Below, piece by piece: positions 35,342 through 63,912 of a DNA stretch of 64,000 bases. A model generated the notes under the pieces. That model made no database searches, was not told the origin of the DNA, and was given only the letters and a program-made list of their open reading frames with translations. The position numbers and the translations under genes are program-made. Position 1 is the stretch's first letter; each line of letters starts with the position of its first letter. Origin of the DNA: Arcanobacterium phocae (lineage in GTDB: Bacteria; Actinomycetota; Actinomycetes; Actinomycetales; Actinomycetaceae); the NCBI RefSeq assembly GCF_900105865.1, contig NZ_LT629804.1, positions 558,001 through 622,000 on the forward strand. The letters are read 5' to 3'.

Positions 35342-36715
35342 TCACTCCATGAATTCAAGTATTTTTCCTGGAAGTTCTCCGATCGCTGCCCCTGCAAGTG
35401 ACGACTTAATTAATCTAGACCCATTTGGTCCAGTTGGACGAACAAGGCCATGGCTAGAGCGAACACTAAAGTAGGACGCTTGTTCTAGCGTATGAGTTCC
35501 TTGCTGTCCAGGCATCCTATCGGCAATAGGAGATAAGATACCCGAAAAGGCTCCATTCATAGTTGCGTTAGCTATCGAAAGTTCTTTACTATTCATCAGA
35601 TCATTTGTTATTGACGCCGCAAATCCTCCTCCAAAATTGATAGTAGCAGTGATGCCACTGGCCAAAGCTGAAGTGGAACGTTGTCCTATAGTTCTAGCGA
35701 TAGTTCCACCAGCAGGTCCTGATAATCCACCAATTCCCCCGGCAACTCCTCCTGAAATAAAGCTTGCAATATACCCCTGAGCCGTTTTTTCATCTTCACT
35801 GAAAGTATAAGATATAATGGAAGATGTACCACCTGCAGCAGCATTTGTTCCTGTCATAGCGAAAAGGCCTTTTACTCCATTAGCGGCTTTAGAAACATTC
35901 ATACTCCATCCCAATAAAGATCCTGTCGCCAGGCCTGTCATTCCAGCAATAGCTACTTCTTTCAAAGAAACGTCTTCGCCAAAAAATTTTTGTACAGCAA
36001 TTGTACTTCCAGCATTAAACAGTCCTTGCCCTGCTGCTACCGCCATAACCAATGCGGGACCAGATAGAGGAGAAAGCATCAATGCAACCCCAGCAACAAC
36101 CGCTAATCCAGCAACGAGGTATGCATGGTCGTTAACAAAATTTCCAGCACGTTCCCAGAACGACACTGACCGGGTGTTGTTATAAGCAGCGAGTTCTTTA
36201 TCCGTTACTGGTTTCAGGCCTAACGGGTCGGATAACGACAACGGGTTGTTTGCCGCATAGTTATACGGGTTTGCCTCCCACACCACACCAGGCAATGCCG
36301 GCAACGGGTCACGGGTAAGGAAACCATACGTGGTGGGGTCATAAACACGTGCCCTCAACCAAGCCAGACCACCAACAAACAGGCTCCCACTACCAACACC
36401 TATCCCATCAGGCAGACTGGGAAGATGATGATGAGTTATCTGATACGGGTTATCTAACCGCATATTCACCGATTCACGCCAACTACCGGTATTTGTGGGG
36501 ATTCCTAGATCGATACCACCAGTGATACTAAAGAATGGTTGATGATCTACACCAACAAGACTATGAAAGGGGCGTCCATAATCCCATTCAATATCCGTAT
36601 CATTAACCCGGTCAAGGAAACCCTAAAGCGTTAACATGAACATCAGTACGGGTTGTGTGTCCATGACCATCACGCTCAACAATGGCCTGTAGCCAGCCTC
36701 GTTCATCCCACACGC
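35342..36715 (-). pseudogene. Silent orphan Rhs toxin-tip cassette (left)
   Basis: From 36715 the sequence matches the Rhs core of the flanking genes (DTDIEWDYGRP, SITGGIDLGIPTNTG, DNPYQITHHHLPSLP, RVYDPTTYGFLTRDPLP, NNPLSLSDPLGL). A 1-nt insertion near 36625 creates a stop, and no good start codon exists; the longest frame (from 36469) begins at a GTG inside the core. After LAAYNNTRS a unique tip of about 250 aa follows, rich in Gly/Ala hydrophobic segments, ending ELPGKILEFME. Lying in the same orientation as the left Rhs gene, it looks like a donor cassette for tip exchange. Confidence 0.75.
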
Positions 36716-36754
36716 AAAGGTATAGGATAAAGAAAGCCCGTCCTACCCAGCCGC

Positions 36755-37843
36755 TAACCTATAACGACGACGGTGTAGGGGTTTACGTGACCATCACCAG
36801 GTGAAGTCGGTGAGGGTGAAAATACTACGACGCGGAAGTACTTGTGGACCACCCTCGAGCAAGTGTGTGGGTGGGCTAAGTGGGATGGTGAGTTTATTGG
36901 TGAAAAACTCATCAACCACCTCATCATCAATACCGGGCGTATGAGCACGTGCTTCTTTCCAATCTACTGGAGAACGCAACCGTAACCCTTCCGTACGTGG
37001 CACAACCAACGCTGGGTAACACATAAACCAGCCCTCAAACGGACGCGACTGCCACCCCTTATTACGGCAATCACCACGTAAATCAATCGATAACCAATCA
37101 CTAAGCGTGGCATCAACATTCTTATACCAGCCTGTGATTTGGTAATGCCAGACTTTGTTTCCCTCACTATCAACCATCAACAACTCGTAGGTGTTTTTCG
37201 TTATGTGGCGTGCCCATAAACACCCAAACGGACCATACTTATTCGCCCGATACTGACATATCTTGTACGCATAATGATTCGCAAGAACAAAACCAACAAT
37301 AGCGCCGCTACTCCATGACCAGATCACTCCGCGTGACATGACCTCGGTGAGATAGATTAATGGTAACCCGCCAATAACCCATCCAAGAATCTGCACACTA
37401 ATACTAATAATGCCGTTTAAATGCCGGCCTGTGTAATACGACCAGGCACACATTAAACCCATATATACTGGCGGAACAAGCCGATACCAGCCAGTAGATA
37501 ACCAGATAGGAACCAGCAAACCAATCAAGACCAACGCAACAGAAAAGAATGCTTGCACAAACTTAAACTCGGCAATATCTACAAACCGGTAGACGCCTTT
37601 AGACCCACGTTCACGCCAATCATGGGACATATCAAACCATAAATTAATCAATCCAGCGCGTTGACGGCGAGCATTACCTGCCATCAACAAATACCGATAC
37701 CGGTGCAGATAATCCTTATACGGGCTGGGATCAAAATTAGTCGAAGCGACCTTTTCTTCCACACTCATTACCACCGATAACGCCGTGGTTTGATCCCCAC
37801 CCTCAACAGCCGTAATACCTTGAGCAAACAACCGGTCAACCTC
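36755..37843. repeat. 1.09-kb inverted repeat, left copy
   Basis: Inverted match to 49308-50396: coordinates sum to 87151 at both ends, so it is gap-free, with patches of divergence. It covers most of the multi-TM genes and 39 bp past their stops, where the near-identity is strongest. Confidence 0.75.
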
Positions 37844-38059
37844 ACCCGCATCATACTCATGAGGAAAGGTGAAAAACTTGATAATCGGATCCCACAAGAA
37901 ACGCAACGGGCGATACAACACCCCAAGTTTTTCCGCACTAATCGTAGGATCCTCATCCAAATCACGTAGCCGTACGCACTCAACCCGCAACCACCACATA
38001 CACCAGGCCAGCAACCGCGAATTATCCACCGTAAACCGACCATAACGATCAGTATCCAT
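36794..38059 (-). CDS. Multi-TM Rhs-associated protein (left copy)
   Basis: 421 aa from ATG 38059; a GTG at 38086 overlapping the Rhs stop is the alternative. Soluble N-terminal region (DTDRYGRFTVDNSRLLAWCMWWLRVE), about four to five TM helices in the middle (roughly 185-285), and a C-terminal soluble part ending RRSIFTLTDFTW. It follows the complete Rhs gene immediately. A paralogue at 49089 is nearly identical except in patches (residues about 25-65, the first TM helices, and a short segment near 330). Unknown family; tip-specific immunity or a secretion accessory role is inferred. Confidence 0.6.
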   Translation of the reverse strand: MDTDRYGRFTVDNSRLLAWCMWWLRVECVRLRDLDEDPTISAEKLGVLYRPLRFLWDPIIKFFTFPHEYDAGEVDRLFAQGITAVEGGDQTTALSVVMSVEEKVASTNFDPSPYKDYLHRYRYLLMAGNARRQRAGLINLWFDMSHDWRERGSKGVYRFVDIAEFKFVQAFFSVALVLIGLLVPIWLSTGWYRLVPPVYMGLMCAWSYYTGRHLNGIISISVQILGWVIGGLPLIYLTEVMSRGVIWSWSSGAIVGFVLANHYAYKICQYRANKYGPFGCLWARHITKNTYELLMVDSEGNKVWHYQITGWYKNVDATLSDWLSIDLRGDCRNKGWQSRPFEGWFMCYPALVVPRTEGLRLRSPVDWKEARAHTPGIDDEVVDEFFTNKLTIPLSPPTHLLEGGPQVLPRRSIFTLTDFTW

Positions 38060-38073
38060 AACTTCTTTCACTT

Positions 38074-41000
38074 TTACTTCTCCCACGGCAAACCAATAAT
38101 ATGAACATCACGAGAACGAACCGGACTCGTAGGACCAGCTTGATACTCATACGTCGCTATTTCTTTACCATCAACAGCTTTATCAAAATTCATCATCCGA
38201 ACCTCACCAGTTTCCACATACTTCTCACCTATCGCAAAAATCTTATCCGGATTTTCTATCGACGTTCGAGGATCATACCCAAACGTTTCAGAACCTAAAT
38301 AATCATCAATATTGTCATATCCCTTTTGACCAAACTGGAATGGCGATACCCCATATAAATCACCATAATAAGCCCTACCCCGAGCTTTAATCCCAGAACC
38401 CACACCACGCATGAGCATATTACGCGGATTAAACATCCCATCTTTAATAGTCCCACCAAACCCCTGGTCGTTTTCACGGCCTACCAAACCATTCAGGCCA
38501 TACTCAAGCACACTAGAGGCACCATCTTCTACCGTATCCCCAACAAAAGACACCCCAAAACGAGCCACACGCCCACCAGCCCCAGACAGCGCATTCAAAC
38601 CATCCTTCGCACCTTTAACAAGCTTTCCTACCCGCTTTATTTTAGTAAGGCCTTTACCGAACCAACCGAGTGCCGCTCCGGCACCTAAACCAGCTAGAAC
38701 ACCAATGCCAACACCTAACCAGTCAACCGACCCGCTAAGAGTTTTCTCAGCAACGACCTGAACCCCAGCACCAAGCAATACCCCAGCAACCGGAAGGCCC
38801 ACACCGGTAAACATCAGTCCTACACCAACACCTATAGCAAGACCGCCTACTACGTTTTCCCAACTCAATCCGTTCTGTTGAACCTTGTGCCATAGGCTTG
38901 TTGACCGGTTGTTGTTATAAGCAGCGAGTTCTTGATCGGTGACTGGTTTCAGGCCTAACGGGTCGGATAAAGACAACGGGTTGTTCGCCGCATAGTTATA
39001 CGGGTTTGCTTCCCATACCACGCCTGGTAGCGGGGGTAGGGGGTCGTGGGTAAGGAAACCATACGTGGTGGGGTCATACACGCGTGCTCCTAACCATGCT
39101 AGGCCGCCAATATGTAGGCTCCCACTACCAACACCTATCCCATCAGGCAGACTGGGAAGATGATGATGAGTTATCTGATACGGGTTATCTAACCGTATAT
39201 TCACCGACTCACGCCAACTACCGGTATTTGTGGGGATTCCTAGATCGATACCACCAGTGATACTAAAGAATGGTTGATGGTCTACACCAACAAGATTGTA
39301 TACCGGGCGTCCATAATCCCATTCAATATCCGTATCACCCACCCGGTCAAGGAAACCCAGAGAGTTAACATGAACATCAGTACGGGTTGTGTGTCCATGA
39401 CCATCACGCTCAACAATAGTCTGTAACCAGCCTCGTTCATCCCACACATATTCGTGAGTCTTACCATTACTAGCAACACGTGTTAAGCGTTGACCTTGAC
39501 CACTATAGGTATACCCCCACTCGGTAGCGTGACCATCACGTGTTGTACTCACACGCGTTAGTTCACTTGCCTGGTTATAGGTAAAACGTGTTGATTCACT
39601 ATGACCATCAGGAGTGTTAGCATGGTTAATGTTGATGATTCGGCCAGCGCAATCGTATTCATAGGTTGTAGAATTACCATCTAGCTGGCGAACTTTTACT
39701 AGCCAGCCAGCATCGTTATACGTATAAGTATAAGAACCATGTTCGTTTCTAATACTCGTTATCCGACCGAACGCGTCACGAGTAATACTCGTGGATTGAC
39801 CATGATAATGATGAGAGATGAAACCATCAACATAGGCCCACGTATGGTTCTCATCTGCACAATCACACGATACGACCCGTCCAGCATTATCGTATCCAAA
39901 ACGCACTTTACCTAAAACACTATGATCAACACCCTCTAGGCGGCCATGCTCATCATAAGAATAGCCTACCTGGTGACCGTCTTCTGTTGTATAACAAATG
40001 CGTTGACCATCTTTGTTATACGCCCAACGAGATTGCACAGAAACCTGGCTGGAACCACCATGAGCTACGTGACGTGTTTGAGATACCAGGCGGCCTTGCC
40101 GGTCATACTCTAATACATGTTCAACTGGTTTAGTTTGGTTTTTATCAGTCCAATCACTCACCACAAGCCGGTGATTATCTCGATCCCTCTCAACACGGCT
40201 CAATAGCCGACCATCACCATAACAAGCCACCAAGTCACCATTATTGTCATACTCAACAGATCGGCGGCGACCATCTGGATCAACCTGACTCAACACGCGA
40301 CCTGCTTGATCATACCCCCACGAGGTAACCCGCCCGAGTTGATCTTTTACACCAACAATATTACCTGCAGCATCGTATGACCTTTCACTGACTGTCCCAC
40401 TAGGATCACACACACGAATAAGCCGGCCACGTTCATCATACGAATAGCGTGTTTTACCACCCACACCGTTAGTCACGCTCACCAATTGACCGGCAGCATC
40501 ATAGGCGAATTTACGGATACCAGTTTTAATATCCGAACTATATGTTACCCGCCCGCACTTATCATATTTACGAACAATCTGACCGATGCCGGGCACCCAT
40601 GCACGAGTTAAACGCCCCAGACCATCATACGAGTACGTTGCTTTTTCTCCGACCGCGTTCACGCGTTCAACCACCCGTGAATCAGCATCATAACCAAACC
40701 GCGTTAGCCCACTCCCAGGCTCATCAACACTAGATAACCGGCCACACTCATCATACGTATAAGTAGTGTGCCGGCCTTCAGGACTAACCACCTGCGTGAC
40801 ACGCCCAGCAAGATCACGCGTCATAACAGTTAGCCCGCCATCACCATCAAGTAGTTCAACAGGCCGACCCAACGCATCATACGTCACAATACTCGCCCCA
40901 CCAAAAGGATCACTACTCTTTACCGGCCGGCCATACTCATCAAACTCAATAACACCATCAACACGACCACGACTATCATAAGCAACACTTTGCTTAAGGC

Positions 41001-43629
41001 CATGGCGAACCGTATTTTTCACCCCGGTAGGATCTTCAACCCCAACCAAAAAACCATTCTTACTATACGTATATGACCAGCTTCCCCCAACCGGATCAAC
41101 AATCGACGTCAAACGAGACAACCCGTCATGAACAAACGAATACCCAGCACCATCAGGCAAAACAAGAACGCTGAGATTCCCTAAATCATCAAACTCACGC
41201 CGGACAGTACGCCCAAGCGCATCAGTATAACTATCAACATCCCCCGCATCATTATACGAATAATGGATTTTCGCATGATACGGATCATCCACAACACTCA
41301 ACCGACCCGAACCATCATACTCAAACCGCCACATGGCACCATCAGGATCACGCCGCGAAACCAACAACCCACGATCATCATACCGATACTCAGTCACATA
41401 ACCCAAAGCAGTACTCACTTTAGTAACACGACCGGCATCATCACGTTCTAGATAAACCTTATCGCCAACAGCATTAGTGATAGAAACAAGATCACCATGA
41501 ACGTCATAACCAAAATCAATCCGAACACCCATCGGATCAATAACATACTCAATCAACCCTTGCCGCCACGAAAGCCGGGTAACACCCCCACACCCATCTA
41601 TAATCCGGCAAGGATAACGCACATCATCATCCGCATACTCATAAGCTAACGTTGACCCATCACCATTAACCAGTAGCGTTAACCGATCAAACCCATCCCA
41701 CTCATAATCAACACGACCACCCGCAGGTAACACATCACGCACAACACGAGACCGCTCATCATACAAATGAATCGTCGCATTACCCTCACGATCACGCACC
41801 TGAACAAGATTGCCATACTTATCATAAGACATCGACTGACGGTTACCATCACAATCAATAACCCCAACCGTTCGCCCAAGCCCATCACCAATCCACGTAT
41901 TACTACGCGAACCATCCTCATCACTCACAGCCGTCACCCCACCAGGCAAATAAGAAAAACGAGTCGTGCGCCCATGCGGTGAAACCTGCGAGAGAACCCG
42001 ACCGTCGTCGTCAAACGTATTCACACACTCAACCACACCCGAAACATCACTCACAGAAACAATAAAATCACGCCCATCCCACGCATAAGAACGTGAACCA
42101 TGAGGCAAACACACTTCTACTAAACGCCGTAAACCATCATAAATATACTCAATTCTTTGCCCACCACTATCACGAACAACAGCCAAACGATCTTCACAAT
42201 ACTCACACTCAAACCAACGACCCCAATGATTTTCACAGCGACTCACACGCCCATCACCATCACGGTAAACCCACACCGAATCAACAAACCCAGAACCATA
42301 CGCAACCAACAAACCCGCAACATCAAAAACCCACCGGTTTCCCTGATTATCGTTAACCACCCACACATCATCCACACGCACTTCGGCCGGAACACCCAAC
42401 AACTCTAATTCACGGACACTACCAGATTGAACCCAAAACGACTCCCGCAACGCACGCCACTGATCGCTTCCCGAAACCACAGGGAAAACAATCCGACGAC
42501 CATCATCACGAACCCACACAATCTCCGTATCACCAACAATAAGACGCTGATCGACAACGGACCACCAACCAACACCACACACACCCACATCAACACTCTT
42601 ATCCGTACGCTGCAAAGCAGACAACACAGAATTAAACATACGGGAAAATACCAGCGAAGAACTAACACCCGCAAAACCCAAATCAACCTCAGGCTCAACA
42701 AAATTACCCGTCACAGTATTCACCGGATCATCCGAATACCCCGTCGTCGGAACCATACCAACAAAAGCCAACGGACCAAGAACCACATGCTCACGCGTAA
42801 TACGAGAATTTTGCAACACAGCAGCCAACGCAGCATCAGATAACGTCACAACACCACCACTACCATCAGCCTCACGAAACGCAGCAGCAACCAACGAAAT
42901 CCAGTCCGCATCATTCATATTCGCGTCAATATGCCGGCGCATAGAAGATATAAAATCAGCCATACCCGCGATGGTCGATTCGCTCTCCTCCTTCCACGTC
43001 CACCCAGCTTCAAAATCATTGTAAGCATTCTCAAAACGCTGAACTGCTGCAGACAAGTCATCACACACCCCACGGCATGCTACAACCCACGAATCCAAAT
43101 CACCTGGACGAGCTGAAGAAACCGGTGCTGTGCCAGCACTACTCCCTAAAACAGGATTATCTCGACCACTCCTAGGCGCATCCACAGATATATTCGGAGC
43201 ATCGAAAGGTTCTTGCTGGAAATCAATAACCGGCTCAGACCACGACCAGCGATATACGAAATCTGGTCCCCACCAATCTTCACGCGCATTTTCCCACTCA
43301 GCATGTTCTTTTTCCCACGCCCGAGCCTTCTCTCGGCGGGCCTGCTCTTCTTTCGCTACTTCCGCTGCCCTATTAATCGACGACACCAGCGAATAAAGCA
43401 TTGCGCGAATATTCGTACTATCCGTACGCTGAACTGATAAATTATTAACAAACTGCTGAGCAAAAACCCCACGAAAATCCACATTAGCCTGCTCACCAAC
43501 TGAATCAATACGACTCATAGCATCAGCAAAAGCATTAATCGAATTCAAGCACTGAGTACGTAAACCCGCACAGACAGCCTCTTGGGAAGGACCCCAAACA
43601 TCCTCTTCAGCACCATGCAACTTACTCAC
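38074..43629 (-). CDS. Complete Rhs/YD-repeat polymorphic toxin, candidate T7SS effector
   Basis: 1851 aa from GTG 43629. Residues 1-120 and about 185-290 are helical, with FENAYNDFEAGW in the second region; this resembles WXG/LXG-type substrate domains. A DUF6531-like start follows (DDPVNTVTGNFVEPEVDLGF, about 308-330), then roughly 25 YD repeats, the Rhs core (about 1505-1558, RVYDPTTYGFL to LSLSDPLGL) and a variable tip (1560-1851). The tip opens with a Gly-rich hydrophobic stretch (IGVGVGLMFTGVGLPVAG) and ends DVHIIGLPWEK; I recognise no catalytic family. Residues from about 416 on lie in the inverted repeat. Followed directly by the multi-TM gene. Confidence 0.85.
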   Translation of the reverse strand: MSKLHGAEEDVWGPSQEAVCAGLRTQCLNSINAFADAMSRIDSVGEQANVDFRGVFAQQFVNNLSVQRTDSTNIRAMLYSLVSSINRAAEVAKEEQARREKARAWEKEHAEWENAREDWWGPDFVYRWSWSEPVIDFQQEPFDAPNISVDAPRSGRDNPVLGSSAGTAPVSSARPGDLDSWVVACRGVCDDLSAAVQRFENAYNDFEAGWTWKEESESTIAGMADFISSMRRHIDANMNDADWISLVAAAFREADGSGGVVTLSDAALAAVLQNSRITREHVVLGPLAFVGMVPTTGYSDDPVNTVTGNFVEPEVDLGFAGVSSSLVFSRMFNSVLSALQRTDKSVDVGVCGVGWWSVVDQRLIVGDTEIVWVRDDGRRIVFPVVSGSDQWRALRESFWVQSGSVRELELLGVPAEVRVDDVWVVNDNQGNRWVFDVAGLLVAYGSGFVDSVWVYRDGDGRVSRCENHWGRWFECEYCEDRLAVVRDSGGQRIEYIYDGLRRLVEVCLPHGSRSYAWDGRDFIVSVSDVSGVVECVNTFDDDGRVLSQVSPHGRTTRFSYLPGGVTAVSDEDGSRSNTWIGDGLGRTVGVIDCDGNRQSMSYDKYGNLVQVRDREGNATIHLYDERSRVVRDVLPAGGRVDYEWDGFDRLTLLVNGDGSTLAYEYADDDVRYPCRIIDGCGGVTRLSWRQGLIEYVIDPMGVRIDFGYDVHGDLVSITNAVGDKVYLERDDAGRVTKVSTALGYVTEYRYDDRGLLVSRRDPDGAMWRFEYDGSGRLSVVDDPYHAKIHYSYNDAGDVDSYTDALGRTVRREFDDLGNLSVLVLPDGAGYSFVHDGLSRLTSIVDPVGGSWSYTYSKNGFLVGVEDPTGVKNTVRHGLKQSVAYDSRGRVDGVIEFDEYGRPVKSSDPFGGASIVTYDALGRPVELLDGDGGLTVMTRDLAGRVTQVVSPEGRHTTYTYDECGRLSSVDEPGSGLTRFGYDADSRVVERVNAVGEKATYSYDGLGRLTRAWVPGIGQIVRKYDKCGRVTYSSDIKTGIRKFAYDAAGQLVSVTNGVGGKTRYSYDERGRLIRVCDPSGTVSERSYDAAGNIVGVKDQLGRVTSWGYDQAGRVLSQVDPDGRRRSVEYDNNGDLVACYGDGRLLSRVERDRDNHRLVVSDWTDKNQTKPVEHVLEYDRQGRLVSQTRHVAHGGSSQVSVQSRWAYNKDGQRICYTTEDGHQVGYSYDEHGRLEGVDHSVLGKVRFGYDNAGRVVSCDCADENHTWAYVDGFISHHYHGQSTSITRDAFGRITSIRNEHGSYTYTYNDAGWLVKVRQLDGNSTTYEYDCAGRIININHANTPDGHSESTRFTYNQASELTRVSTTRDGHATEWGYTYSGQGQRLTRVASNGKTHEYVWDERGWLQTIVERDGHGHTTRTDVHVNSLGFLDRVGDTDIEWDYGRPVYNLVGVDHQPFFSITGGIDLGIPTNTGSWRESVNIRLDNPYQITHHHLPSLPDGIGVGSGSLHIGGLAWLGARVYDPTTYGFLTHDPLPPLPGVVWEANPYNYAANNPLSLSDPLGLKPVTDQELAAYNNNRSTSLWHKVQQNGLSWENVVGGLAIGVGVGLMFTGVGLPVAGVLLGAGVQVVAEKTLSGSVDWLGVGIGVLAGLGAGAALGWFGKGLTKIKRVGKLVKGAKDGLNALSGAGGRVARFGVSFVGDTVEDGASSVLEYGLNGLVGRENDQGFGGTIKDGMFNPRNMLMRGVGSGIKARGRAYYGDLYGVSPFQFGQKGYDNIDDYLGSETFGYDPRTSIENPDKIFAIGEKYVETGEVRMMNFDKAVDGKEIATYEYQAGPTSPVRSRDVHIIGLPWEK
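39071..42382 (-). repeat. 3.3-kb inverted repeat, left arm (Rhs core)
   Basis: Near-identical to 43972-47283 in inverted orientation. Coordinates of matching bases sum to 86354 at both ends and at interior check points, so no gaps are apparent. Encoded proteins differ at only about 9-10 of ~1104 residues. Identity stops abruptly at the start of the Rhs core signature on one side and at codon ~416 on the other. Confidence 0.92.
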
Positions 43630-43971
43630 AACAAACCGCCAATCACATCAAAATCAACATGCTAGAGGTATAAAACTAGCGAAAAGCAACCTGACAACAC
43701 AACGTTAACCACATATCAACCAATATTCTACCCACAACTACCATATTTGGAATATTACCCTATGGTCATACTGACATGACTCCAATGATGTGCAGCACTT
43801 AGTGCCCTACAGTTCCCCATAATTAATGCTCCGACAATGTCTGTTCGCTATTACAATATAAACCGTTATCCTTTGTACCGATAGTGCCTATAGGTCTGTA
43901 TTTTATAAACAGAAGCTAAGCGTTTTTAGATGCGGTATGCATGAGATGGAGTCGTTAAATATTCCTGGCTT
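42383..43971. other. Candidate invertible segment carrying the Rhs N-terminus
   Basis: This 1,589-bp spacer between the arms holds the start, secretion-type N-terminus and DUF6531-like part of the left Rhs gene (minus strand), plus 307 bp of AT-rich noncoding DNA (43630-43936). No gene or clear terminator is seen in the noncoding part; the promoter of the Rhs gene must lie there. Recombination between the arms would flip the segment and join this N-terminus in frame to the right-hand gene. Confidence 0.6.
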
Positions 43972-46900
43972 AGTGCGTGTGGATGATGTGTGGGTGGTTA
44001 ACGATAATCAGGGAAACCGGTGGGTTTTTGATGTTGCGGGTTTGTTGGTTGCGTATGGTTCTGGGTTTGTTGATTCGGTGTGGGTTTACCGTGATGGTGA
44101 TGGGCGTGTGAGTCGCTGTGAAAATCATTGGGGTCGTTGGTTTGAGTGTGAGTATTGTGAAGATCGTTTGGCTGTTGTTCGTGATAGTGGTGGGCAAAGA
44201 ATTGAGTATATTTATGATGGTTTACGGCGTTTAGTAGAAGTGTGTTTGCCTCATGGTTCACGTTCTTATGCGTGGGATGGGCGTGATTTTATTGTTTCTG
44301 TGAGTGATGTTTCGGGTGTGGTTGAGTGTGTGAATACGTTTGACGACGACGGTCGGGTTCTCTCGCAGGTTTCACCGCATGGGCGCACGACTCGTTTTTC
44401 TTATTTGCCTGGTGGGGTGACGGCTGTGAGTGATGAGGATGGTTCGCGTAGTAATACGTGGATTGGTGATGGGTTTGGGCGAACGGTTGGGGTTATTGAT
44501 TGTGATGGTAACCGTCAGTCGATGTCTTATGATAAGTATGGCAATCTTGTTCAGGTGCGTGATCGTGAGGGTAATGCGACGATTCATTTGTATGATGAGC
44601 GGTCTCGTGTTGTGCGTGATGTGTTACCTGCGGGTGGTCGTGTTGATTATGAGTGGGATGGGTTTGATCGGTTAACGCTACTGGTTAATGGTGATGGGTC
44701 AACGTTAGCTTATGAGTATGCGGATGATGATGTGCGTTATCCTTGCCGGATTATAGATGGGTGTGGGGGTGTTACCCGGCTTTCGTGGCGGCAAGGGTTG
44801 ATTGAGTATGTTATTGATCCGATGGGTGTTCGGATTGATTTTGGTTATGACGTTCATGGTGATCTTGTTTCTATCACTAATGCTGTTGGCGATAAGGTTT
44901 ATCTAGAACGTGATGATGCCGGTCGTGTTACTAAAGTGAGTACTGCTTTGGGTTATGTGACTGAGTATCGGTATGATGATCGTGGGTTGTTGGTTTCGCG
45001 GCGTGATCCTGATGGTGCCATGTGGCGGTTTGAGTATGATGGTTCGGGTCGGTTGAGTGTTGTGGATGATCCGTATCATGCGAAAATCCATTATTCGTAT
45101 AATGATGCGGGGGATGTTGATAGTTATACTGATGCGCTTGGGCGTACTGTCCGGCGTGAGTTTGATGATTTAGGGAATCTCAGCGTTCTTGTTTTGCCTG
45201 ATGGTGCTGGGTATTCGTTTGTTCATGACGGGTTGTCTCGTTTGACGTCGATTGTTGATCCGGTTGGGGGAAGCTGGTCATATACGTATAGTAAGAATGG
45301 TTTTTTGGTTGGGGTTGAAGATCCTACCGGGGTGAAAAATACGGTTCGCCATGGCCTTAAGCAAAGTGTTGCTTATGATAGTCGTGGTCGTGTTGATGGT
45401 GTTATTGAGTTTGATGAGTATGGCCGGCCGGTAAAGAGTAGTGATCCTTTTGGTGGGGCGAGTATTGTGACGTATGATGCGTTGGGTCGGCCTGTTGAAC
45501 TACTTGATGGTGATGGCGGGCTAACTGTTATGACGCGTGATCTTGCTGGGCGTGTCACGCAGGTGGTTAGTCCTGAAGGCCGGCACACTACTTATACGTA
45601 TGATGAGTGTGGCCGGTTATCTAGTGTTGATGAGCCTGGGAGTGGGCTAACGCGGTTTGGTTATGATGCTGATTCACGGGTGGTTGAACGCGTGAACGCG
45701 GTCGGAGAAAAAGCAACGTACTCGTATGATGGTCTGGGGCGTTTAACTCGTGCATGGGTGCCCGGCATCGGTCAGATTGTTCGTAAATATGATAAGTGCG
45801 GGCGGGTAACATATAGTTCGGATATTAAAACTGGTATCCGTAAATTCGCCTATGATGCTGCCGGTCAATTGGTGAGCGTGACTAACGGTGTGGGTGGTAA
45901 AACACGCTATTCGTATGATGAACGTGGCCGGCTTATTAGTGTGTGTGATCCTAGTGGGACAGTCAGTGAAAGGTCATACGATGCTGCAGGTAATATTGTT
46001 GGTGTAAAAGATCAACTCGGGCGGGTTACCTCGTGGGGGTATGATCAAGCAGGTCGCGTGTTGAGTCAGGTTGATCCAGATGGTCGCCGCCGATCTGTTG
46101 AGTATGACAATAATGGTGACTTGGTGGCTTGTTATGGTGATGGTCGGCTATTGAGCCGTGTTGAGAGGGATCGAGATAATCACCGGCTTGTGGTGAGTGA
46201 TTGGACTGATAAAAACCAAACTAAACCAGTTGAACATGTATTAGAGTATGACCGGCAAGGCCGCCTGGTATCTCAAACACGTCACGTAGCTCATGGTGGT
46301 TCCAGCCAGGTTTCTGTGCAATCTCGTTGGGCGTATAACAAAGATGGTCAACGCATTTGTTATACAACAGAAGACGGTCACCAGGTAGGCTATTCTTATG
46401 ATGAGCATGGCCGCCTAGAGGGTGTTGATCATAGTGTTTTAGGTAAAGTGCGTTTTGGATACGATAATGCTGGACGGGTCGTATCGTGTGATTGTGCAGA
46501 TGAGAACCATACGTGGGCCTATGTTGATGGTTTCATCTCTCATCATTATCATGGTCAATCCACGAGTATTACTCGTGACGCGTTCGGTTGGATAACGAGT
46601 ATTAGAAACGAACATGGTTCTTATACTTATACGTATAACGATGCTGGCTGGCTAGTAAAAGTTCGCCAGCTAGATGGTAATTCTACAACCTATGAATACG
46701 ATTGCGCTGGCCGAATCATCAACATTAACCATGCTAACACTCCTGATGGTCATAGTGAATCAACACGTTTTACCTATAACCAGGCAAGTGAACTAACGCG
46801 TGTGAGTACAACACGTGATGGTCACGCTACCGAGTGGGGGTATACCTATAGTGGTCAAGGTCAACGCTTAACACGTGTTGCTAGTAATGGTAAGACTCAC

Positions 46901-48307
46901 GAATATGTGTGGGATGAACGAGGCTGGCTGCAAGAGGTTATTGAGCGTGATGGTCATGGACACACAACCCGTACTGATGTTCATGTCAACGCTTTAGGGT
47001 TTTTGGACCGGGTTAATGATACGGATATTGAATGGGATTATGGACGCCCGGTATACAATCTTGTTGGTGTAGACCATCAACCATTCTTTAGTATCACTGG
47101 TGGTATCGATCTAGGAATCCCTACAAATACCGGTAGTTGGCGTGAATCGGTGAATATGCGGTTAGATAACCCGTATCAGATAACTCATCATCATCTTCCC
47201 AGTCTGCCTGATGGGATAGGTGTTGGTAGTGGGAGCCTACATATTGGCGGCCTAGCATGGTTAGGAGCACGCGTGTATGACCCTACCACCTACAGTTTCC
47301 TTACCCGTGACCCGTTGCCGGCATTGCCTGGCGTGGTATGGGAAGCAAACCCGTATAATTACGCGGCGAACAACCCGTTGTCTTTATCCGACCCACTCGG
47401 ACTCAAACCAGTCACCGATCAAGAACTGGCCGCATACAACGCAAACCGATCAACATCTTTCTGGGAGGATACTACTAGTTTCTTTGCAAATAACTGGGAA
47501 TATATTGCTGCTGGAGTGGCGGTTGTTGTTGGAATAGGTGTTGCTGCTACGGGTGTTGGTGGTCCGTTGGGTGCTGCGATTATTTCTGGTGCGTTGATAT
47601 CTGGTGGTGTTTCTATTGGGTCGCAAAAATATTCCACTGGTAGTGTCGATTTTTGGCAGGTTGGTAAAGAGGCGTTGGTTGGTGGTGTTCTTGGTGGTAT
47701 CGGTGCGGGTGCGTCAAATCTTGTATCGTCGAAACTCTTGCAGTATTCGTCAACAGCTAGGTCTGCTTTAGCAGAAAATCTAGGCAATGAGGCGGTTAAG
47801 AAGGCTGGTAGTGGTGTGTTGGCGATGGTTAAAGGTCAAACGAAGTTATCAGTTGCAACTAAGATAGCAGCTGAAAGTGATGTTTTTGCGAAAAGTAGCC
47901 TTGCCCTTTCCAATATAGGGGGCGAAGTGGCATCGAATTTTGCTACGGCAAACGCGGGGTATGTGATTGACGTGGTCAGTGATCCGGCTCGTGATTTTAG
48001 TGCTCATGATCTCCTCCTCACGAATATTAATGCAGGTGTCTCTAGTGGAGTTAGTGCATATGGAAATCTGTTTAAAGTAAGCGAGACCGCTAATCTTGGG
48101 AATACTTTTGATGACAATGCGGTAAAACTTATCATCAATGGTGGGACAACAGCCGTTACGAGTGGAGTAAATATGAGTGTTGATGCTAGCGTGAATTATC
48201 TCATGGGTGAAGACTATCAAATCGGTACTGAACTTACTAAAACTGGAGTAACAGACATGGGTGATGTGCTACATGAGAGTATCCCTCAGATCAACATTGG
48301 CAATTAA
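43937..48307 (+). pseudogene. Rhs gene lacking its N-terminal domain (silent alternative toxin)
   Basis: 1456 codons. Only 11-12 residues precede the shared part (EMESLNIPGLV, a diverged version of ELELLGVPAEV in the left gene), so the helical and DUF6531-like domains are absent. No convincing Shine-Dalgarno precedes the ATG at 43937. YD repeats and core match the left gene, but the tip (about 1160-1456) is different: a Gly/Ala-rich hydrophobic region (VAVVVGIGVAATGVGGPLG) and a tail ending SIPQINIGN. Intact from residue 13 to the end, so it would be functional if the N-terminus were joined by inversion. Immunity-type genes follow at once. Confidence 0.75.
43972..47283 (+). repeat. 3.3-kb inverted repeat, right arm (Rhs core)
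   Basis: Partner of 39071-42382. Visible protein-level differences include Leu/Phe in IGDG(L/F)GRT, Arg/Ser in RLI(R/S)VCD, Arg/Trp in DAFG(R/W)ITS and a small cluster near 46930-47020. Beyond 47283 synonymous differences accumulate and the tips become unrelated after LAAYN. Confidence 0.92.
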
Positions 48308-48340: not shown

Positions 48341-49024
48341 ATGATGATGATTGAACCGGCGAAGTTTGGTGAGGGGCTGGCGTTTAGTGCGGGGGCTGGT
48401 AGTGCGAGTATGCAGCGTGCGTTGCGGAAGATGAGTAAAGATCCTGCCGAAGAACGCGTGTTTTCCCAAGCAAAGATACTCGTGCCTGTTGGCGGGTTAG
48501 GGTGCCTTTTAATGGGTCTTATTATTTTTGTAGGTTTGCAGTCCATGTATGTGGGAGAGCCAGTAGACCCTGCTATGGTGCCTGCATGTTCAGTTGGTTT
48601 CGCGATTAGTTTCGTTTTATTGTCGCATGGTTTGTGGCGTCGGTTTGGGGTTGATCGTGATAAGGTGTGGACGAAGTTTGGGTTCTTGTTTTATCGTGAG
48701 GTCCGCTTTGATGAGGTGACTAAGCTTGGTTATGGTGTGAACCGGTATAAGCTGTATGCGGGTCGGAAAAAGATCAATATTGACTATAATCGATTCGATT
48801 ACTCGCTGGTGTATTTACGTCTGTTAGAAGAACTCCAACACCGCCGGTTTGAATTGCTCAGGTGTCCTATTGATGATCCTGAGTGGGATGAAAATGCTCA
48901 GATAACGCGTAACGGTTTCGCGGAAAGGATTTACACTGAGCATCAAGAGTTTTATGCCAATAACCCGCAAGCCCTCGCGTATTTAAACTCGTTAACCGAA
49001 ACCCCCACCCACTACGACAACTAG
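48341..49024 (+). CDS. PH-like two-TM putative immunity protein (mosaic)
   Basis: 227 aa. The start (ATGATGATG at 48341) has AAAGGA upstream and lies 34 bp after the silent Rhs gene. N-terminal 58 residues and the PH-like domain plus tail are essentially identical to the 33130 copy, but the TM hairpin (LMGLIIFVGLQSMYVGEPVD to VGFAISF) matches the 54295 copy instead. So the gene is a recombinant of two family members. Likely immunity to the right-hand tip. Confidence 0.65.
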   Translation: MMMIEPAKFGEGLAFSAGAGSASMQRALRKMSKDPAEERVFSQAKILVPVGGLGCLLMGLIIFVGLQSMYVGEPVDPAMVPACSVGFAISFVLLSHGLWRRFGVDRDKVWTKFGFLFYREVRFDEVTKLGYGVNRYKLYAGRKKINIDYNRFDYSLVYLRLLEELQHRRFELLRCPIDDPEWDENAQITRNGFAERIYTEHQEFYANNPQALAYLNSLTETPTHYDN

Positions 49025-49088
49025 TGTTTATATGACTAGCGCGTAGCTCATGCGTGTAGCACACATGAGCTGGTTTGGGAGGATGCAC

Positions 49089-50357
49089 ATGTCAGAGTCT
49101 GATCGTTATGGTCGGTTTACGGTGGATAATTCGCGGTTGCTGGCCTGGTGTATGTGGTGGTTGCGGGTTGAGTGTGTGCGGATGCGTGGGTTGCGGGAGT
49201 CTCCGGTATTAACACCAAAGATGCTTGGGGTGTTGTATCGTCCGTTACGTGTTGTGTGGGACCCAATTATCAAGTTTCTTACGTTCCGGTTTAAGTATGA
49301 TTCTGCTGAGGTTGACCGGTTGTTTGCTCAAGGTATTACGGCTGTTGAGGGTGGGGATCAAACCACGGCGTTATCGGTGGTGATGAGTGTGGAAGAAAAG
49401 GTCGCTTCGACTAATTTTGATCCCAGCCCGTATAAGGATTATCTGCACCGGTATCGGTATTTGTTGATGGCAGGTAATGCTCGCCGTCAACGCGCTGGAT
49501 TGATTAATTTATGGTTTGATATGTCCCATGATTGGCGTGAACGTGGGTCTAAAGGTGTGTACCGGTTTGTAGATATTGCCGAGTTTAATATTGTTCTGGG
49601 TTTCTTTTCTGTGGTGTTTATTTTTATTGGCTTGTTCTTCCCTATTTGGCTTTCTTCTGGCTGGTATCGGCTTGTTCCGCCAGTATATATGGGTTTAATG
49701 TGTGCCTGGTCGTATTACACAGGCCGACATTTGAACGGCATTATTAGTATTAGTGTGCAGATTCTTGGCTGTGTTATTGGCGGGTTACCATTAATCTATC
49801 TCACCGAGGTCATGTCACGCGGAGTGATCTGGTCATGGAGTAGTGGCGCTATTGTTGGTTTTGTTCTTGCGAATCATTATGCGTACAAGATATGTCAGTA
49901 TCGAGCGAATAAGTATGGTCCGTTTGGATGTTTATGGGCACGCCACATAACGAAAAACACCTACGAGTTGTTGATGGTTGATAGTGAGGGAAACAAAGTC
50001 TGGCATTACCAAATCACAGGCTGGGATAAGAATATTGAGCCTACTCTTGCTATTGGTTTAACGACTAACCTGTGGGGGGCGTGCCGTAATAAGGGGTGGC
50101 AGTCGCGTCCGTTTGAGGGCTGGTTTATGTGTTATCCGGCGTTGGTTGTGTCACGTACGGAAGGAATGCGATTACGATCACCCGTTGATTGGAAAGAAGC
50201 ACGTGCTCATACGCCCGGTATTGATGATGAGGTGGTTGATGAGTTTTTCACCAATAAACTCACCATCCCACTTAGCCCACCCACACACTTGCTCGAGGGT
50301 GGTCCACAAGTACTTCCACGTCGTAGTATTTTCACCCTCACCGACTTCACCTGGTGA
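49089..50357 (+). CDS. Multi-TM Rhs-associated protein (right copy)
   Basis: 422 aa from ATG 49089, which has GGGAGG 6 nt upstream; earlier in-frame ATGs lack a site. Same layout as the left copy: DRYGRFTVDNSRLLAW, a four-to-five-TM middle and the ending RRSIFTLTDFTW. Differences cluster (RMRGLRESPVLTPKML, NIVLGFFSVVFIFIG, DKNIEPTLAIGLTTNLWGA), suggesting diversifying segments that could match specific partners. Third gene of the right-hand plus-strand run (Rhs, PH-like, multi-TM). Confidence 0.6.
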   Translation: MSESDRYGRFTVDNSRLLAWCMWWLRVECVRMRGLRESPVLTPKMLGVLYRPLRVVWDPIIKFLTFRFKYDSAEVDRLFAQGITAVEGGDQTTALSVVMSVEEKVASTNFDPSPYKDYLHRYRYLLMAGNARRQRAGLINLWFDMSHDWRERGSKGVYRFVDIAEFNIVLGFFSVVFIFIGLFFPIWLSSGWYRLVPPVYMGLMCAWSYYTGRHLNGIISISVQILGCVIGGLPLIYLTEVMSRGVIWSWSSGAIVGFVLANHYAYKICQYRANKYGPFGCLWARHITKNTYELLMVDSEGNKVWHYQITGWDKNIEPTLAIGLTTNLWGACRNKGWQSRPFEGWFMCYPALVVSRTEGMRLRSPVDWKEARAHTPGIDDEVVDEFFTNKLTIPLSPPTHLLEGGPQVLPRRSIFTLTDFTW

Positions 50358-59622: not shown

Positions 59623-62600
59623 ATGCGAATAGTTATTGGGCAATCAAACAATGAACACGTTTATTTTGCGTCCAATATGGACCAAGAAACTACATTGCAT
59701 GAAATTATCTTCACATCAGGTAATGATGTTCGAGATTTTGAAGAGATCTGGGTAGATGGTATCGCTAGTAGCCTTTCACAGACTGTTAAAGAGGCACACC
59801 TATATGAAGGATCCACAATAACGAACTATCCGACCTTGGGTGGTAGCGTAACGACTGCTAGTCCTTCACTAGAAAGCCAGTGGGAACTGCGGTGTATAGG
59901 TGGATTATCCAGTACTGAATCTTACCCGCTATGCGCTGGTCAAGTTCTTCGTATTGGAAGGTCAGATCAAGCAGACATTACACTTCACTCAGCTTCTGTG
60001 TCATGGTCGCACGCAGTGCTCAGCATTGATGAGCGTGGTGTGTGGATAGCGGACGATTCGTCGTCGAACGGAACTTTCGTTGACGGGCAACGTATTAATA
60101 CCGAATCGACCGAACCAATTTTACTTACCGAAGGGAGCATCCTCGGATTAGGTGGAATTTGTTTGATACTTCAACGGCCTCAACCAGTTCCAACTCAGCC
60201 AGATCTTCCCTACACTGCTGGCGGTCTAATCGCATTCAATCGTCCACCTCGTGTGGCTTTACCGCCGCATAGTGAGCCAGTGAGTGTACCGGTAAAGAAA
60301 GATTCTCAAGGAAAAGCGCATTTTTCGTGGATTAGTGTCCTTGCGCCATTATTTATGGCGATGGGTATGGTGGCGGTTATGGGGTCGGCACGATACGCGC
60401 TCATCGCGTTATTATCCCCCGTTATGGCTGTTGGATCGTGGTTAGAGCAAAAACGACGGAATAAAGACAACGAAAAAGAAAACGAAGAAAACTATTGCCG
60501 CGATCTAGAAATAACTCGGCAAGAAATTATTGATGCAAGCGAAGCAGAACGGGTTCGTGATCGATTACAAACACCCTATCCACACGAACTAATAGAGACC
60601 GTTCAGCATGCCACACCTGCCCTATGGCAGGTACGGGCAAGTGACGAAGATTTTCTTACCGCCACCATGGGAACCACAAACCGGGAATTCACTCCACTTC
60701 GAAAATCATATAGTGGCCAATTGCAAGCACGAACACAAGAAGTATTCGACGAAGCAACAATCTTTGCTACACCCCAGATTGTTGACTTATGTAAAGGCCC
60801 TGTCGGCATATGGGGGCCACGAGAATCTAGTATGGCATTAGCTCGTTCGTTGCTCTGCCAGTTGGCTACTTCTTCTGGGCCAGGAGATTATCGGGTCGTT
60901 GTGCTAACCGACAAGGCACGTAGCGAAGATTGGCGATTTACCGCATGGCTACCGCATACTCAAACTGGTAATACTAATCCACATGAGCGTTTCATAGCTT
61001 TAGATTCCACTCAAGCTACAACAATGGCACGAATGTTACGGGATCAGCTAAACCAACCAGAAGCTGATGCAATGCTACTAGTGGTAGACGATATTTCTTT
61101 ACTCCAAGGAAGAGATTGTCCCGTCCGAGACATACTCGAATATGATCGCAATGTTAACCAGCAACGACGTCGTAAACGACCCGTCACGGCAATTATTTTA
61201 GCTGCACAAGCTAACGAACTACCTTCCATATGCCACAGCGTCATCGAAGTGAAATATGACAACGACGCAACACTGATGATTCCTTCCCAAGCAAAGACTA
61301 CTGAGTCGATCACCATATCTGGGATTAGTGCAAGTGAAGCTCAAGAATGGTCGCGCATGTTGGCTAGATTTGACGATCCGAATGCGTCTGCGGGCGGTGG
61401 TGGATTACCAAGCCTAGTTCACTTATTTGATCTATTAGGATTCAACCGGAGCACTATTGATGGCTCAACAATAACGAAGTCGTGGGATTCTTTTGATGGA
61501 TACAATGTTCCATTGGGTGTTTACGAGGACGGAATATATACCTTTGATTTAGTCAAGGACGGTCCACACGGACTGGTTGGAGGAACTACAGGATCGGGTA
61601 AATCTGAGCTACTGCGTTCCCTTGTTGCTGGTTTGGCAGCAAAAATTGATCCGGAACATTTGACGTTTATTCTTATAGATTTTAAGGGAGGGGCCGCATT
61701 CGCCTCACTTGATCAATTGCCACACACCATTGGCACACTTTCTAATCTAGAATCATCATTAGCCTATCGAGCCTTGAAAGCACTCGAAGCAGAACTGGCG
61801 TGGCGGCAAAAATGTTTTTCCGAAGCCGGAGAAAACGTAGATAATATTGATGCCTATCTTGCAACCCGCCCGGCTCAGCCAATGCCACGATTACTGGTAG
61901 TTGTTGACGAATTTGCGCAATTAGCAAAAGAGTATCCAGATGTACTGACATCATTGGTGTCGATCGGTGCGGTAGGGCGAACACTGGGCGTACATATGAT
62001 TCTTGCGACGCAGCGTCCGGCAGGTGTTGTTAATGACGATATCTTAGCGAATACTAATATGCGTGCAGCGCTTCGTGTTCAAAGCCGCGAAGATTCTTCA
62101 AATGTTATCGGAGTGCCGCTAGCTGCAAGTATTGGGCGCAACCAACGCGGGCGAGCATATATCAAGCTTGGAGAGGAAGACATAACACCAATCCAGACTG
62201 CACTAGTTACCGGTGTGAGTGGAATTAAACAGACAAACGATCTTTTTGTTGATCCGATGATTTTAGGAATGCCCCCTCAAGATCACACTGTCACCACTAG
62301 CACAGATAGCAACAATGACATGGAAGTATTGATTGAAGCTATTAAAGAGGCGAACAAAAAGAAAGGCTTCAAACCGGCTCGAAAAGTATGGCCAGATCCG
62401 TTAGAAGAACATGTGCGGTTGCGTCTTGAACATGCTTTGGACGACGACGAACATGCACAGCTCCAAGAAATACGTGCAGATAATAGAGCGAAATCAGTGA
62501 TACAAGTAGGCCTATATGATGATCCGGATCATCAACAACAGTATGTATCTGGCTGGGATATTTCCGATGGCAACCTTGTGATCGCAGGCATACCAGGTTC

Positions 62601-63912
62601 TGGAACGTCGAGTGCGCTGGTGTCGCTGGCATTGCGGATAGCAGACACGTATGCTCCCGATGAGGCTGACATACTTGTTCTAGATGCGGGAACATCGTCG
62701 TTGAGTGCACTTGAAGAGTTATCGCACGTTCGCGGGTTTGCTGGAGCAGGAACAGCAAACCGGGAACTCCAAACACGGTTGTTGCGTTACTTGCATAATG
62801 AGTTAGAGAAGAGGACTGCCGATTCGCAGCAAAAATATCCTAAAGTTTTTGTTCTTATCGACGGTTTAACAGTGCTAAAAGAAGAATATAATGACATTGA
62901 CGGAACGCAGTTGCTAGAACAGTTCTATCGAGTGTGGGCAAAAGGACCTGCATTGGGGATCCATTGTGCCGCAACCACTAATCGCCTCAAGGCGCTACCC
63001 ACGGCAATTAATGAGATAACAAGCCAAAAGTGGCTTTTCCGATTGGCGGATAGCTACGATTACTCACTCGCCGAAATTGCTAGGGACAACCATCCAGCGC
63101 CGCTGCCAGGGCGATATGTTGATGCGTTGCGGTCACATCAAGCTCACATCGGATTAGCGCAAGATGCTCAACGCAGTATTGAGGAGATTAACAAGTCGTG
63201 GGGTCTTGAATACGCCCACAGACCGTTATTAGTGCAAAAGCTTCCGACGTTCGTTGAGCCGACTTTGCTAGCAGATTATGCACGTATTGGGACAGAACCA
63301 TGGAATATTCCGATTGGAATGAGTGAAGCTGATCTGCAACCGCATATGCTTCACGCATATGGTGGAGAACATGTGTTAATTGCGGGGCCAGCACGATCTG
63401 GTAAATCAACAATGCTAGGGGCGATTCGTTCTGTTTTTGCTGCTGCTGCAAAGAAGAACAATATTGATTTGACCATTTTTACAGTGGCATCTCGACGTTC
63501 TACATTACATACGTTATTTGATGATGTTCGAGAGCATGATGAGATTTCAGCCGTTGTTGCAAGTGCTCAAGCATTATCTGGTCCATGTGTCATTTTAATT
63601 GACGATGGACACCTTGTTACTGATTCTGACCAGTCGTTATTCTCGCTGATCAAGAAGTCAGATCCGCGAATTCTCATTGTTGTTACCGGAAGAAATGAGG
63701 ATTTACGAAACATGTACGACAATTGGATAAAAGAATTACGCAAATCTCGCTTGGGTGTTTTGCTGGCACCTAACGTTGATTTCGATGGACCTCTATTGGG
63801 TGCTCAGATACCGCGACGTTCGCCGGTGAATCTAAGTATTGGCCGTGGGTATGCTTGTCAAAATGGGGTAGTATCATTGATTCAAGCAGCTACGTTGTGG
63901 AAGGATCAGTAA
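59623..63912 (+). CDS. Type VII secretion FtsK/SpoIIIE ATPase with FHA domain (EssC/EccC-like)
   Basis: 1429 aa. Residues 1-85 form an EssC-type N-terminal beta domain and 88-185 an FHA domain (LRIGRSDQADITL, SWSHAVL, SSSNGTFVDG). Two TM helices lie at 236-273. Three ATPase domains follow: D1 with Walker A GGTTGSGKSE (about 651) and Walker B LLVVVDEFAQL (about 758); D2 with a degenerate Walker A (GIPGSGTSS, Lys replaced by Thr, about 988); D3 with GPARSGKST (about 1254). It powers export of WXG100-type substrates. The FHA suggests control by the following kinase. Confidence 0.93.
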   Translation: MRIVIGQSNNEHVYFASNMDQETTLHEIIFTSGNDVRDFEEIWVDGIASSLSQTVKEAHLYEGSTITNYPTLGGSVTTASPSLESQWELRCIGGLSSTESYPLCAGQVLRIGRSDQADITLHSASVSWSHAVLSIDERGVWIADDSSSNGTFVDGQRINTESTEPILLTEGSILGLGGICLILQRPQPVPTQPDLPYTAGGLIAFNRPPRVALPPHSEPVSVPVKKDSQGKAHFSWISVLAPLFMAMGMVAVMGSARYALIALLSPVMAVGSWLEQKRRNKDNEKENEENYCRDLEITRQEIIDASEAERVRDRLQTPYPHELIETVQHATPALWQVRASDEDFLTATMGTTNREFTPLRKSYSGQLQARTQEVFDEATIFATPQIVDLCKGPVGIWGPRESSMALARSLLCQLATSSGPGDYRVVVLTDKARSEDWRFTAWLPHTQTGNTNPHERFIALDSTQATTMARMLRDQLNQPEADAMLLVVDDISLLQGRDCPVRDILEYDRNVNQQRRRKRPVTAIILAAQANELPSICHSVIEVKYDNDATLMIPSQAKTTESITISGISASEAQEWSRMLARFDDPNASAGGGGLPSLVHLFDLLGFNRSTIDGSTITKSWDSFDGYNVPLGVYEDGIYTFDLVKDGPHGLVGGTTGSGKSELLRSLVAGLAAKIDPEHLTFILIDFKGGAAFASLDQLPHTIGTLSNLESSLAYRALKALEAELAWRQKCFSEAGENVDNIDAYLATRPAQPMPRLLVVVDEFAQLAKEYPDVLTSLVSIGAVGRTLGVHMILATQRPAGVVNDDILANTNMRAALRVQSREDSSNVIGVPLAASIGRNQRGRAYIKLGEEDITPIQTALVTGVSGIKQTNDLFVDPMILGMPPQDHTVTTSTDSNNDMEVLIEAIKEANKKKGFKPARKVWPDPLEEHVRLRLEHALDDDEHAQLQEIRADNRAKSVIQVGLYDDPDHQQQYVSGWDISDGNLVIAGIPGSGTSSALVSLALRIADTYAPDEADILVLDAGTSSLSALEELSHVRGFAGAGTANRELQTRLLRYLHNELEKRTADSQQKYPKVFVLIDGLTVLKEEYNDIDGTQLLEQFYRVWAKGPALGIHCAATTNRLKALPTAINEITSQKWLFRLADSYDYSLAEIARDNHPAPLPGRYVDALRSHQAHIGLAQDAQRSIEEINKSWGLEYAHRPLLVQKLPTFVEPTLLADYARIGTEPWNIPIGMSEADLQPHMLHAYGGEHVLIAGPARSGKSTMLGAIRSVFAAAAKKNNIDLTIFTVASRRSTLHTLFDDVREHDEISAVVASAQALSGPCVILIDDGHLVTDSDQSLFSLIKKSDPRILIVVTGRNEDLRNMYDNWIKELRKSRLGVLLAPNVDFDGPLLGAQIPRRSPVNLSIGRGYACQNGVVSLIQAATLWKDQ

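What the first reader, a model, noticed from the sequence alone, without database searches (positions are those of the whole stretch)
39071..47283. Candidate invertible toxin selector: two Rhs tips share one N-terminus through a 3.3-kb inverted repeat
Two head-to-head Rhs genes share gap-free, nearly identical 3,312-bp arms. The 1,589-bp spacer holds the only secretion-type N-terminus and start codon. Flipping the spacer by homologous recombination within the arms would keep the reading frame and join that N-terminus to the other toxin tip. Only one tip would be exported at a time and the population would be mixed. Rhs tip exchange by recombination is known; a reversible N-terminal switch in a T7SS-linked Rhs locus is, as far as I know, not a described system.
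Basis: partly seen in the sequence, partly recalled or inferred. Interest (0 to 1): 0.9.

Follow-up and report, generated by a model that had tools for sequence, protein, structure and literature searches.

The report
Rhs toxin pair sharing one start
Two bacterial toxin genes lie head to head and share a 3.3-kb near-identical body, but only one has the front end thought to be needed for export; flipping the short DNA between them should swap which toxin is made while keeping both presumed antidote genes, but flipping itself has not been seen.

Summary
Observation confirmed: 39071-42382 and 43972-47283 are gap-free inverted arms of 3,312 bp with 25 mismatches. The inner 2,956 bp differ at 3 sites. 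The 1,589-bp spacer holds this locus's only Rhs N-terminus; codon phase is equal on both sides, so an inversion keeps the frame. Each arm ends in a different tip with its own downstream gene; tip1/430-aa and tip2/227-aa pairs recur at other Rhs genes, so tip2 looks like a stored toxin-immunity module. Patchy identity among the copies points to past recombination. recA is present; no resolvase-type recombinase was found in the genome and no tyrosine recombinase in the window.

Not shown: flipped molecules, a mixed population, selection for switching. Against a maintained switch: a close head-to-head pair was seen in 1 of 213 family genomes (few candidates scored per genome), and 3 of 3 interior differences change amino acids. 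Best reading: a headless Rhs cassette exchangeable by RecA-type inversion, a new variant of the known main/orphan Rhs recombination.

The parts
38074..43629 (-). ORF1: complete Rhs gene, 1,851 aa, N-terminus + RHS core + tip1
   Evidence: ORF; DUF6531 and 15 RHS_repeat stretches
43937..48307 (+). ORF2: headless Rhs gene, 1,456 aa, RHS core + tip2
   Evidence: ORF; RHS_repeat, no DUF6531
38899..42382 (-). Left arm of the inverted repeat (core of ORF1)
   Evidence: 3,484 bp gap-free, 55 mismatches to the right arm; longest perfect tract 40417-41879, 1,463 bp
43972..47455 (+). Right arm of the inverted repeat (core of ORF2)
   Evidence: as for the left arm
42383..43971 (.). Spacer, 1,589 bp: the segment that inversion would turn round
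   Evidence: between the arms; equal codon phase at both ends
42383..43629 (-). N-terminal coding part with long helices and DUF6531
43937..43971 (+). 35 bp of diverged similarity to ORF1 just inside the right arm
   Evidence: 20 of 35 identical, shuffle p 5.5e-5
38077..38898 (-). Tip1
   Evidence: homologues over residues 3-272 (39%) at two other Rhs genes
47456..48307 (+). Tip2
   Evidence: homologue over residues 10-200 of 282 (47%) in G210, in a 1,857-aa frame that also holds the core
36794..38086 (-). 430-aa membrane protein, presumed partner (immunity) of tip1
   Evidence: overlaps the end of ORF1; relatives follow tip1-like tips in L027, L029, L031; two hydrophobic stretches
48341..49024 (+). 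227-aa membrane protein, presumed partner (immunity) of tip2
   Evidence: relatives follow tip2-like stretches in L041 and L051; two hydrophobic stretches
49050..50357 (+). 435-aa paralogue of the 430-aa protein
   Evidence: 89% identical
35342..36713 (-). Orphan core end + tip3, same direction as ORF1
   Evidence: tip3 homologue in L034
34678..35295 (-). 205-aa membrane protein, presumed partner of tip3
   Evidence: weak relative (25%, E 4.8e-6) follows the tip3-like tip in L034
50415..52451 (+). Orphan core end + tip1-like tip4, interrupted by an insertion sequence
   Evidence: tip1-like pieces at 50875-50997 and 52245-52451; integrase core domain at 51790-52230
59623..63912 (+). EssC/EccC-like type VII secretion ATPase
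   Evidence: TIGR03928 514 bits, below its cut-off of 778.4; FtsK_SpoIIIE and FHA over cut-off

Best explanation
This is a polymorphic Rhs toxin locus, probably served by a type VII secretion system, in which one N-terminal cassette sits between two inverted Rhs cores with different tips. RecA-type crossing over in the 3.3-kb arms would invert the spacer and join the same N-terminus, in frame, to the other core and tip; the gene armed before becomes headless. The genes following both tips lie outside the arms and are kept in either state. Tip2 is thus a stored, exchangeable module rather than debris, and exchange is probably infrequent and unregulated. Shown: geometry, frame, recurrence of the tip-partner pairs, patchwork among the copies, presence of recA. 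Inferred: that inversion happens in growing cells, that the partner genes are immunity genes, that the type VII system exports the protein, and that selection keeps the option.
For: Arms of 3,484 bp with 55 mismatches, 3 in the inner 2,956 bp, longest perfect tract 1,463 bp; equal codon phase; tip1/430-aa and tip2/227-aa pairs recur elsewhere; both tip frames are open; patchwork of identity among five core ends and within the outer arm (3 of 267 vs 49 of 261, p 3.8e-13); recA present. Recombination over 522 bp at 95% identity was shown for Salmonella rhs (PMC3967940 passages).
Against: No flipped molecule was seen. 3 of 3 interior differences change amino acids, and the one with a clear direction (R to W at a site where 10 of 11 relatives with a letter have R) is in the headless copy, as expected of a copy seldom exposed to selection. 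No promoter-like site in 42383-44100 (0 found, 2.8 expected in shuffles).
Confidence: 0.55

Rival explanations
1. Passive inverted duplication: the headless copy is an orphan Rhs remnant, lengthened or homogenised once by recombination with the main gene. It may flip by accident but has no role as a switch and is decaying.
For: Unique in the genomes seen (with its cap); 3 of 3 interior differences change amino acids; orphan pieces are common in this locus and in the sister genome's syntenic place; another orphan here is broken by an insertion sequence.
Against: ORF2 is open over 1,456 codons and its tip has a homologue followed by the same kind of partner gene in G210; the inner edge and the outer arm look older than the inner 3 kb, which suggests homogenisation of an older pair.
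Confidence: 0.35
2. Assembly error: the inverted arrangement or the spacer orientation was made by the assembler.
For: Spacer orientation between 3.3-kb near-identical arms cannot be fixed by short reads; the sequencing method is unknown to me and no reads were available.
Against: The arms differ at 55 sites and have different tips, inner edges and flanks, so this is not one contig used twice; the genome is one contig of 1,998,242 bp. A wrongly oriented spacer would still leave the same two-state locus.
Confidence: 0.05

Closest known systems
Main/orphan rhs recombination of Salmonella Typhimurium LT2 (PMC3967940; abstract and passages seen)
   Same: A headless rhs fragment with its own tip and immunity gene is fused to the main gene by homologous recombination in the shared core.
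   Different: There 522 bp at 95%, orphan downstream of the main gene, and the recombination would delete the main immunity gene unless the locus is first duplicated. Here 3.3-kb inverted arms, with the product predicted to be an inversion that loses nothing. PMC4927057 (passage) notes that reversion of the Salmonella event can restore the ancestral locus, so reversibility as such is not new.
Headless T7SS Rhs genes (truncated lrhA) of Listeria seeligeri (PMC10327511; section 21 read)
   Same: Rhs genes linked to a type VII system that lack the helical N-terminus and DUF6531 and keep core and a divergent toxin end; proposed as templates for diversification.
   Different: Described downstream of truncated essC variants; no shared inverted N-terminal cassette is described in the section read.
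Mycoplasma pulmonis vsa inversion (review PMC4534519; passage)
   Same: DNA inversion moves the promoter and N-terminal coding DNA of one expression site onto silent genes.
   Different: Site-specific inversion and surface antigens; here long homologous arms and toxins, no local invertase found.
Pneumococcal hsdS switch SpnD39III (PMC4190663; passages)
   Same: Active gene shares inverted repeats with truncated copies that lack 5' ends, ribosome sites and promoters.
   Different: Repeats of 85, 333 and 15 bp with a recombinase gene in the locus; specificity subunit, not a toxin.
Orphan cdiA-CT and mafB-CT cassettes (PMC4927057 and PMC4287609; passages)
   Same: Silent toxin-immunity modules that may be fused to the full-length gene by recombination.
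Campylobacter fetus sap S-layer inversion (recalled; key paper not held; passages of PMC4943207 seen do not describe the inversion)
   Same: From recall: inversion between homologous genes puts one promoter before alternative genes.
   Different: Surface proteins; not checked here.

Membership tests
Rhs polymorphic toxin | RHS/YD repeat core | tested here: met
   PF05593 360 bits in ORF1 and 374 bits in ORF2, cut-off 22; sequence relatives of solved Rhs proteins
Rhs polymorphic toxin | N-terminal region before the core (here DUF6531 type) | tested here: met
   met by ORF1 (59.6 bits, cut-off 24.1), not by ORF2
Rhs polymorphic toxin | Divergent tip after a DPxGL-type motif | tested here: met
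   DPLGL in all four aligned sequences, divergence after it; the motif as border is from PMC3967940
Rhs polymorphic toxin | Cognate immunity gene next to the tip | tested here: inconclusive
   tip-partner pairs recur in other genomes, protection untested
Rhs polymorphic toxin | Toxic activity of the tip | not testable with these tools
   no known toxin domain matched; no convincing solved relative
Type VII secretion substrate | ESX-like helical N-terminal fold | tested here: inconclusive
Type VII secretion substrate | Type VII ATPase encoded nearby | tested here: inconclusive
   EssC/EccC-like protein at 59623-63912, E 8e-154 but below the NCBIfam cut-offs; weak WXG100 match at 55142-55507 (20.9 bits, cut-off 27.3)
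Type VII secretion substrate | Export by the system | not testable with these tools
   needs an experiment
Orphan rhs-CT module (Salmonella type) | Lacks the N-terminal region of the main gene but shares core sequence with it | tested here: met
Orphan rhs-CT module (Salmonella type) | Lies downstream of the main gene | tested here: not met
   ORF2 lies upstream of ORF1 and on the other strand; tip3 does lie downstream of ORF1
Phase-variable inversion system | Invertible segment between inverted repeats | tested here: met
   as geometry only
Phase-variable inversion system | Both orientations observed | not testable with these tools
Site-specific invertase system | Recombinase gene in or beside the locus | tested here: not met
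   resolvase family 0 matches in the genome; 3 tyrosine-recombinase matches, none in the window

The most novel reading that the evidence does not exclude
A reversible two-weapon selector: one type VII Rhs N-terminal cassette is flipped by homologous recombination between two long core arms to arm either of two tips, while both immunity genes are kept throughout, so the switch avoids the loss of immunity that direct main/orphan recombination entails.
Probability: 0.35. Interest if true: 0.8.

Novelty: new variant of a known kind. Interest (0 to 1): 0.6.

Why it matters
Main/orphan rhs recombination arms a new toxin but was described as deleting the old immunity gene unless the locus is first duplicated (PMC3967940 and PMC4927057, passages). 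An inverted reserve copy would remove that cost: the exchange loses nothing and can go back. If both orientations are found in cultures, it would be a case of toxin heterogeneity within a clone at a Gram-positive Rhs locus, and long reads can test it directly. My ten literature searches listed no paper whose title or shown abstract describes an inversion switch of an Rhs toxin; the library holds open-licence PMC papers only, and I opened ten papers, nine in passages and one with a section as well.

Tried and rejected
The one scan of named genomes found a single distant relative, an Acidipropionibacterium MAG, 36%. No solved relative of tip2 at E <= 1; for tip1 only weak gamma carbonic anhydrase matches (best E 0.017), taken as chance. 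Foldseek on the N-terminal model: nothing at E <= 0.001. Promoter scan of 42383-44100: none. tRNA scan: none. Class survey: 6 of 394 genomes, own included, had core matches at E <= 1e-60, no other opposite-strand pair on one contig (at most 2 candidates scored per genome in the rows shown).

Considered and rejected: a site-specific invertase; one contig used twice (55 differences, different flanks). G044 has a headless Rhs stretch facing away from a longer Rhs gene, but about 14 kb apart, the longest DNA match 343 bp at 71%, so not a comparable switch.

Limits and dropped rows: at most 3 candidate stretches per genome were scored in the rows shown (for example 13 candidates, 3 scored), so further core copies may be missed; in G000 itself that call left out the orphans. 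One search used 47 of 261 in a Fisher test; the recount is 49 of 261. Of the 16 stretches, 12 went into the alignment; of those 12, L029 and L030 (wrong frame in the extracted stretch) were left out of alignment A1 and L002 was added, A1 holding 12 sequences with the window's own. A first try at handing in this report was garbled by my formatting of the fields; odds for interest and the novel case are unchanged, and the odds in the explanation sections are the intended ones.

Full report
What is there. Two Rhs genes face away from each other. ORF1 (43629 to 38074, minus strand, 1,851 aa) is complete; ORF2 (43937 to 48307, plus strand, 1,456 aa) lacks the N-terminal 400 or so residues. The inner 2,956 bp differ at 3 sites, with a longest perfect tract of 1,463 bp; the outer 528 bp differ at 52 (Fisher p 4.5e-40). 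The 1,589-bp spacer holds the N-terminal coding part of ORF1 and the DNA upstream of it.

Frame. 1,247 coding bases of ORF1 and 35 of ORF2 lie in the spacer before the arm; both leave remainder 2 on division by three. A crossover in register therefore keeps the frame. I did not build the flipped gene.

The tips. After the DPLGL motif the proteins diverge. Tip1 has homologues over residues 3-272 of 274 (39%) at the end of another Rhs gene of this genome, which carries one in-frame TAG, and of a G006 Rhs gene that is split over two frames; both are followed by relatives of the 430-aa protein (33%), and weaker relatives of tip1 (24%) and of the 430-aa protein (28%) follow one another in G082. Tip2 has a homologue (47% over residues 10-200 of 282) in G210, in a 1,857-aa frame that also holds the core, followed by a relative of the 227-aa protein (40%); a second, weaker case is G121 (27% and 48%). 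Tip3 and the 205-aa protein recur together in G143 (42% and 25%). These recurrent pairs argue that tip2 is a real toxin-immunity module rather than debris. No tip matched a known toxin domain or a convincing solved relative. The 227-aa protein has further paralogues in the window (85%, 70% and 52%), so immunity to tip2 may not depend on the adjacent copy alone.

History. Five core ends (left arm, right arm, orphan 3, orphan 4, G006 orphan) show a patchwork in 60-column blocks. At 39330 both arms equal the G006 copy (0 of 60) and differ from orphan 3 (7 of 60). In the next block the left arm equals orphans 3 and 4 (0 of 60), differs from the right arm at 1 of 60 and from G006 at 9. At 39150 the arms are identical and orphan 3 differs at 9. 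Inside the outer arm 3 of 267 sites differ in one stretch and 49 of 261 in the rest (p 3.8e-13). At the inner edge, 35 bp of ORF2 still resemble ORF1 (20 of 35, shuffle p 5.5e-5) in a part that varies widely among relatives. The simplest reading is that the inner 3 kb were recently homogenised between two older inverted copies. A recent partial duplication is not excluded. The syntenic place of the sister genome G006 has orphan core and tip pieces, 430-like and 227-like genes and transposase genes, and no N-terminus.

Mechanism. The genome has recA, no resolvase-type recombinase, and three tyrosine-recombinase matches, all outside the window. Recombination over 522 bp at 95% was reported for Salmonella rhs (PMC3967940, passages). 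In Burkholderia thailandensis, RecA-dependent duplication rose from 1e-7 to 1e-4 with homology from 50 to 500 bp (PMC9946442, passages). By that standard these arms should recombine readily; as they are inverted, the product would be inversion. This step is inference.

Against. No flipped molecule was seen. In the family survey 23 of 213 genomes had the core, and G000 alone had opposite-strand core matches within 10 kb; at most 3 candidates per genome were scored in the rows shown, so other pairs may be missed. All three interior differences change amino acids (L/F, R/S, R/W). Only R/W has a clear direction: 10 of the 11 relatives with a letter there have R, and the W is in the headless copy. 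That fits a copy seldom exposed to selection, though three sites decide little. No promoter-like site was found in 42383-44100. PMC4927057 (passage) already notes that the Salmonella fusion can revert, so reversibility alone is not new.

Known relatives. It works like the M. pulmonis vsa inversion (passage in review PMC4534519) and the pneumococcal hsdS switch (PMC4190663, passages), both of which use site-specific recombination or a recombinase gene. By content it belongs with Rhs main/orphan loci (PMC3967940) and with the headless T7SS lrhA genes of L. seeligeri (PMC10327511, section 21). It departs from the described orphan layout, downstream of and in line with the main gene (PMC3967940, PMC4927057), by being inverted and upstream, the feature that would make the exchange loss-free.

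Organism. Unnamed: one contig of 1,998,242 bp, nine genomes of its genus in this collection, own included. From recall, size and composition suggest an Arcanobacterium-like actinomycete; no call shows this.

Noticed in passing
50415-52451: Orphan core end with a tip1-like tip, interrupted by an insertion sequence (tip1-like pieces at 50875-50997 and 52245-52451).
   Followed up: partly
G000:C1:359255-364669 (L029): A further Rhs gene of full length, 43% identical to ORF1, with one in-frame TAG, a tip1-like tip (39%) and a 430-like gene after it.
   Followed up: partly
31850-32242, 33130-33810, 48341-49024, 54295-54966: A string of paralogous membrane proteins of the 227-aa kind (52-85% to the 227-aa protein), perhaps spare immunity genes.
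   Followed up: partly
36730-38052 and 49099-50424: A second, outer inverted repeat (91% over 1.33 kb) that spans the whole Rhs pair and could allow a larger inversion.
   Followed up: no
L024 and L025 (G044): A headless Rhs stretch on the strand opposite to a longer Rhs gene, about 14 kb away; longest DNA match 343 bp at 71%.
   Followed up: partly
40-2898: Protein with a YPDG domain and a weak Rib/alpha-like repeat match, probably a surface protein.
   Followed up: no
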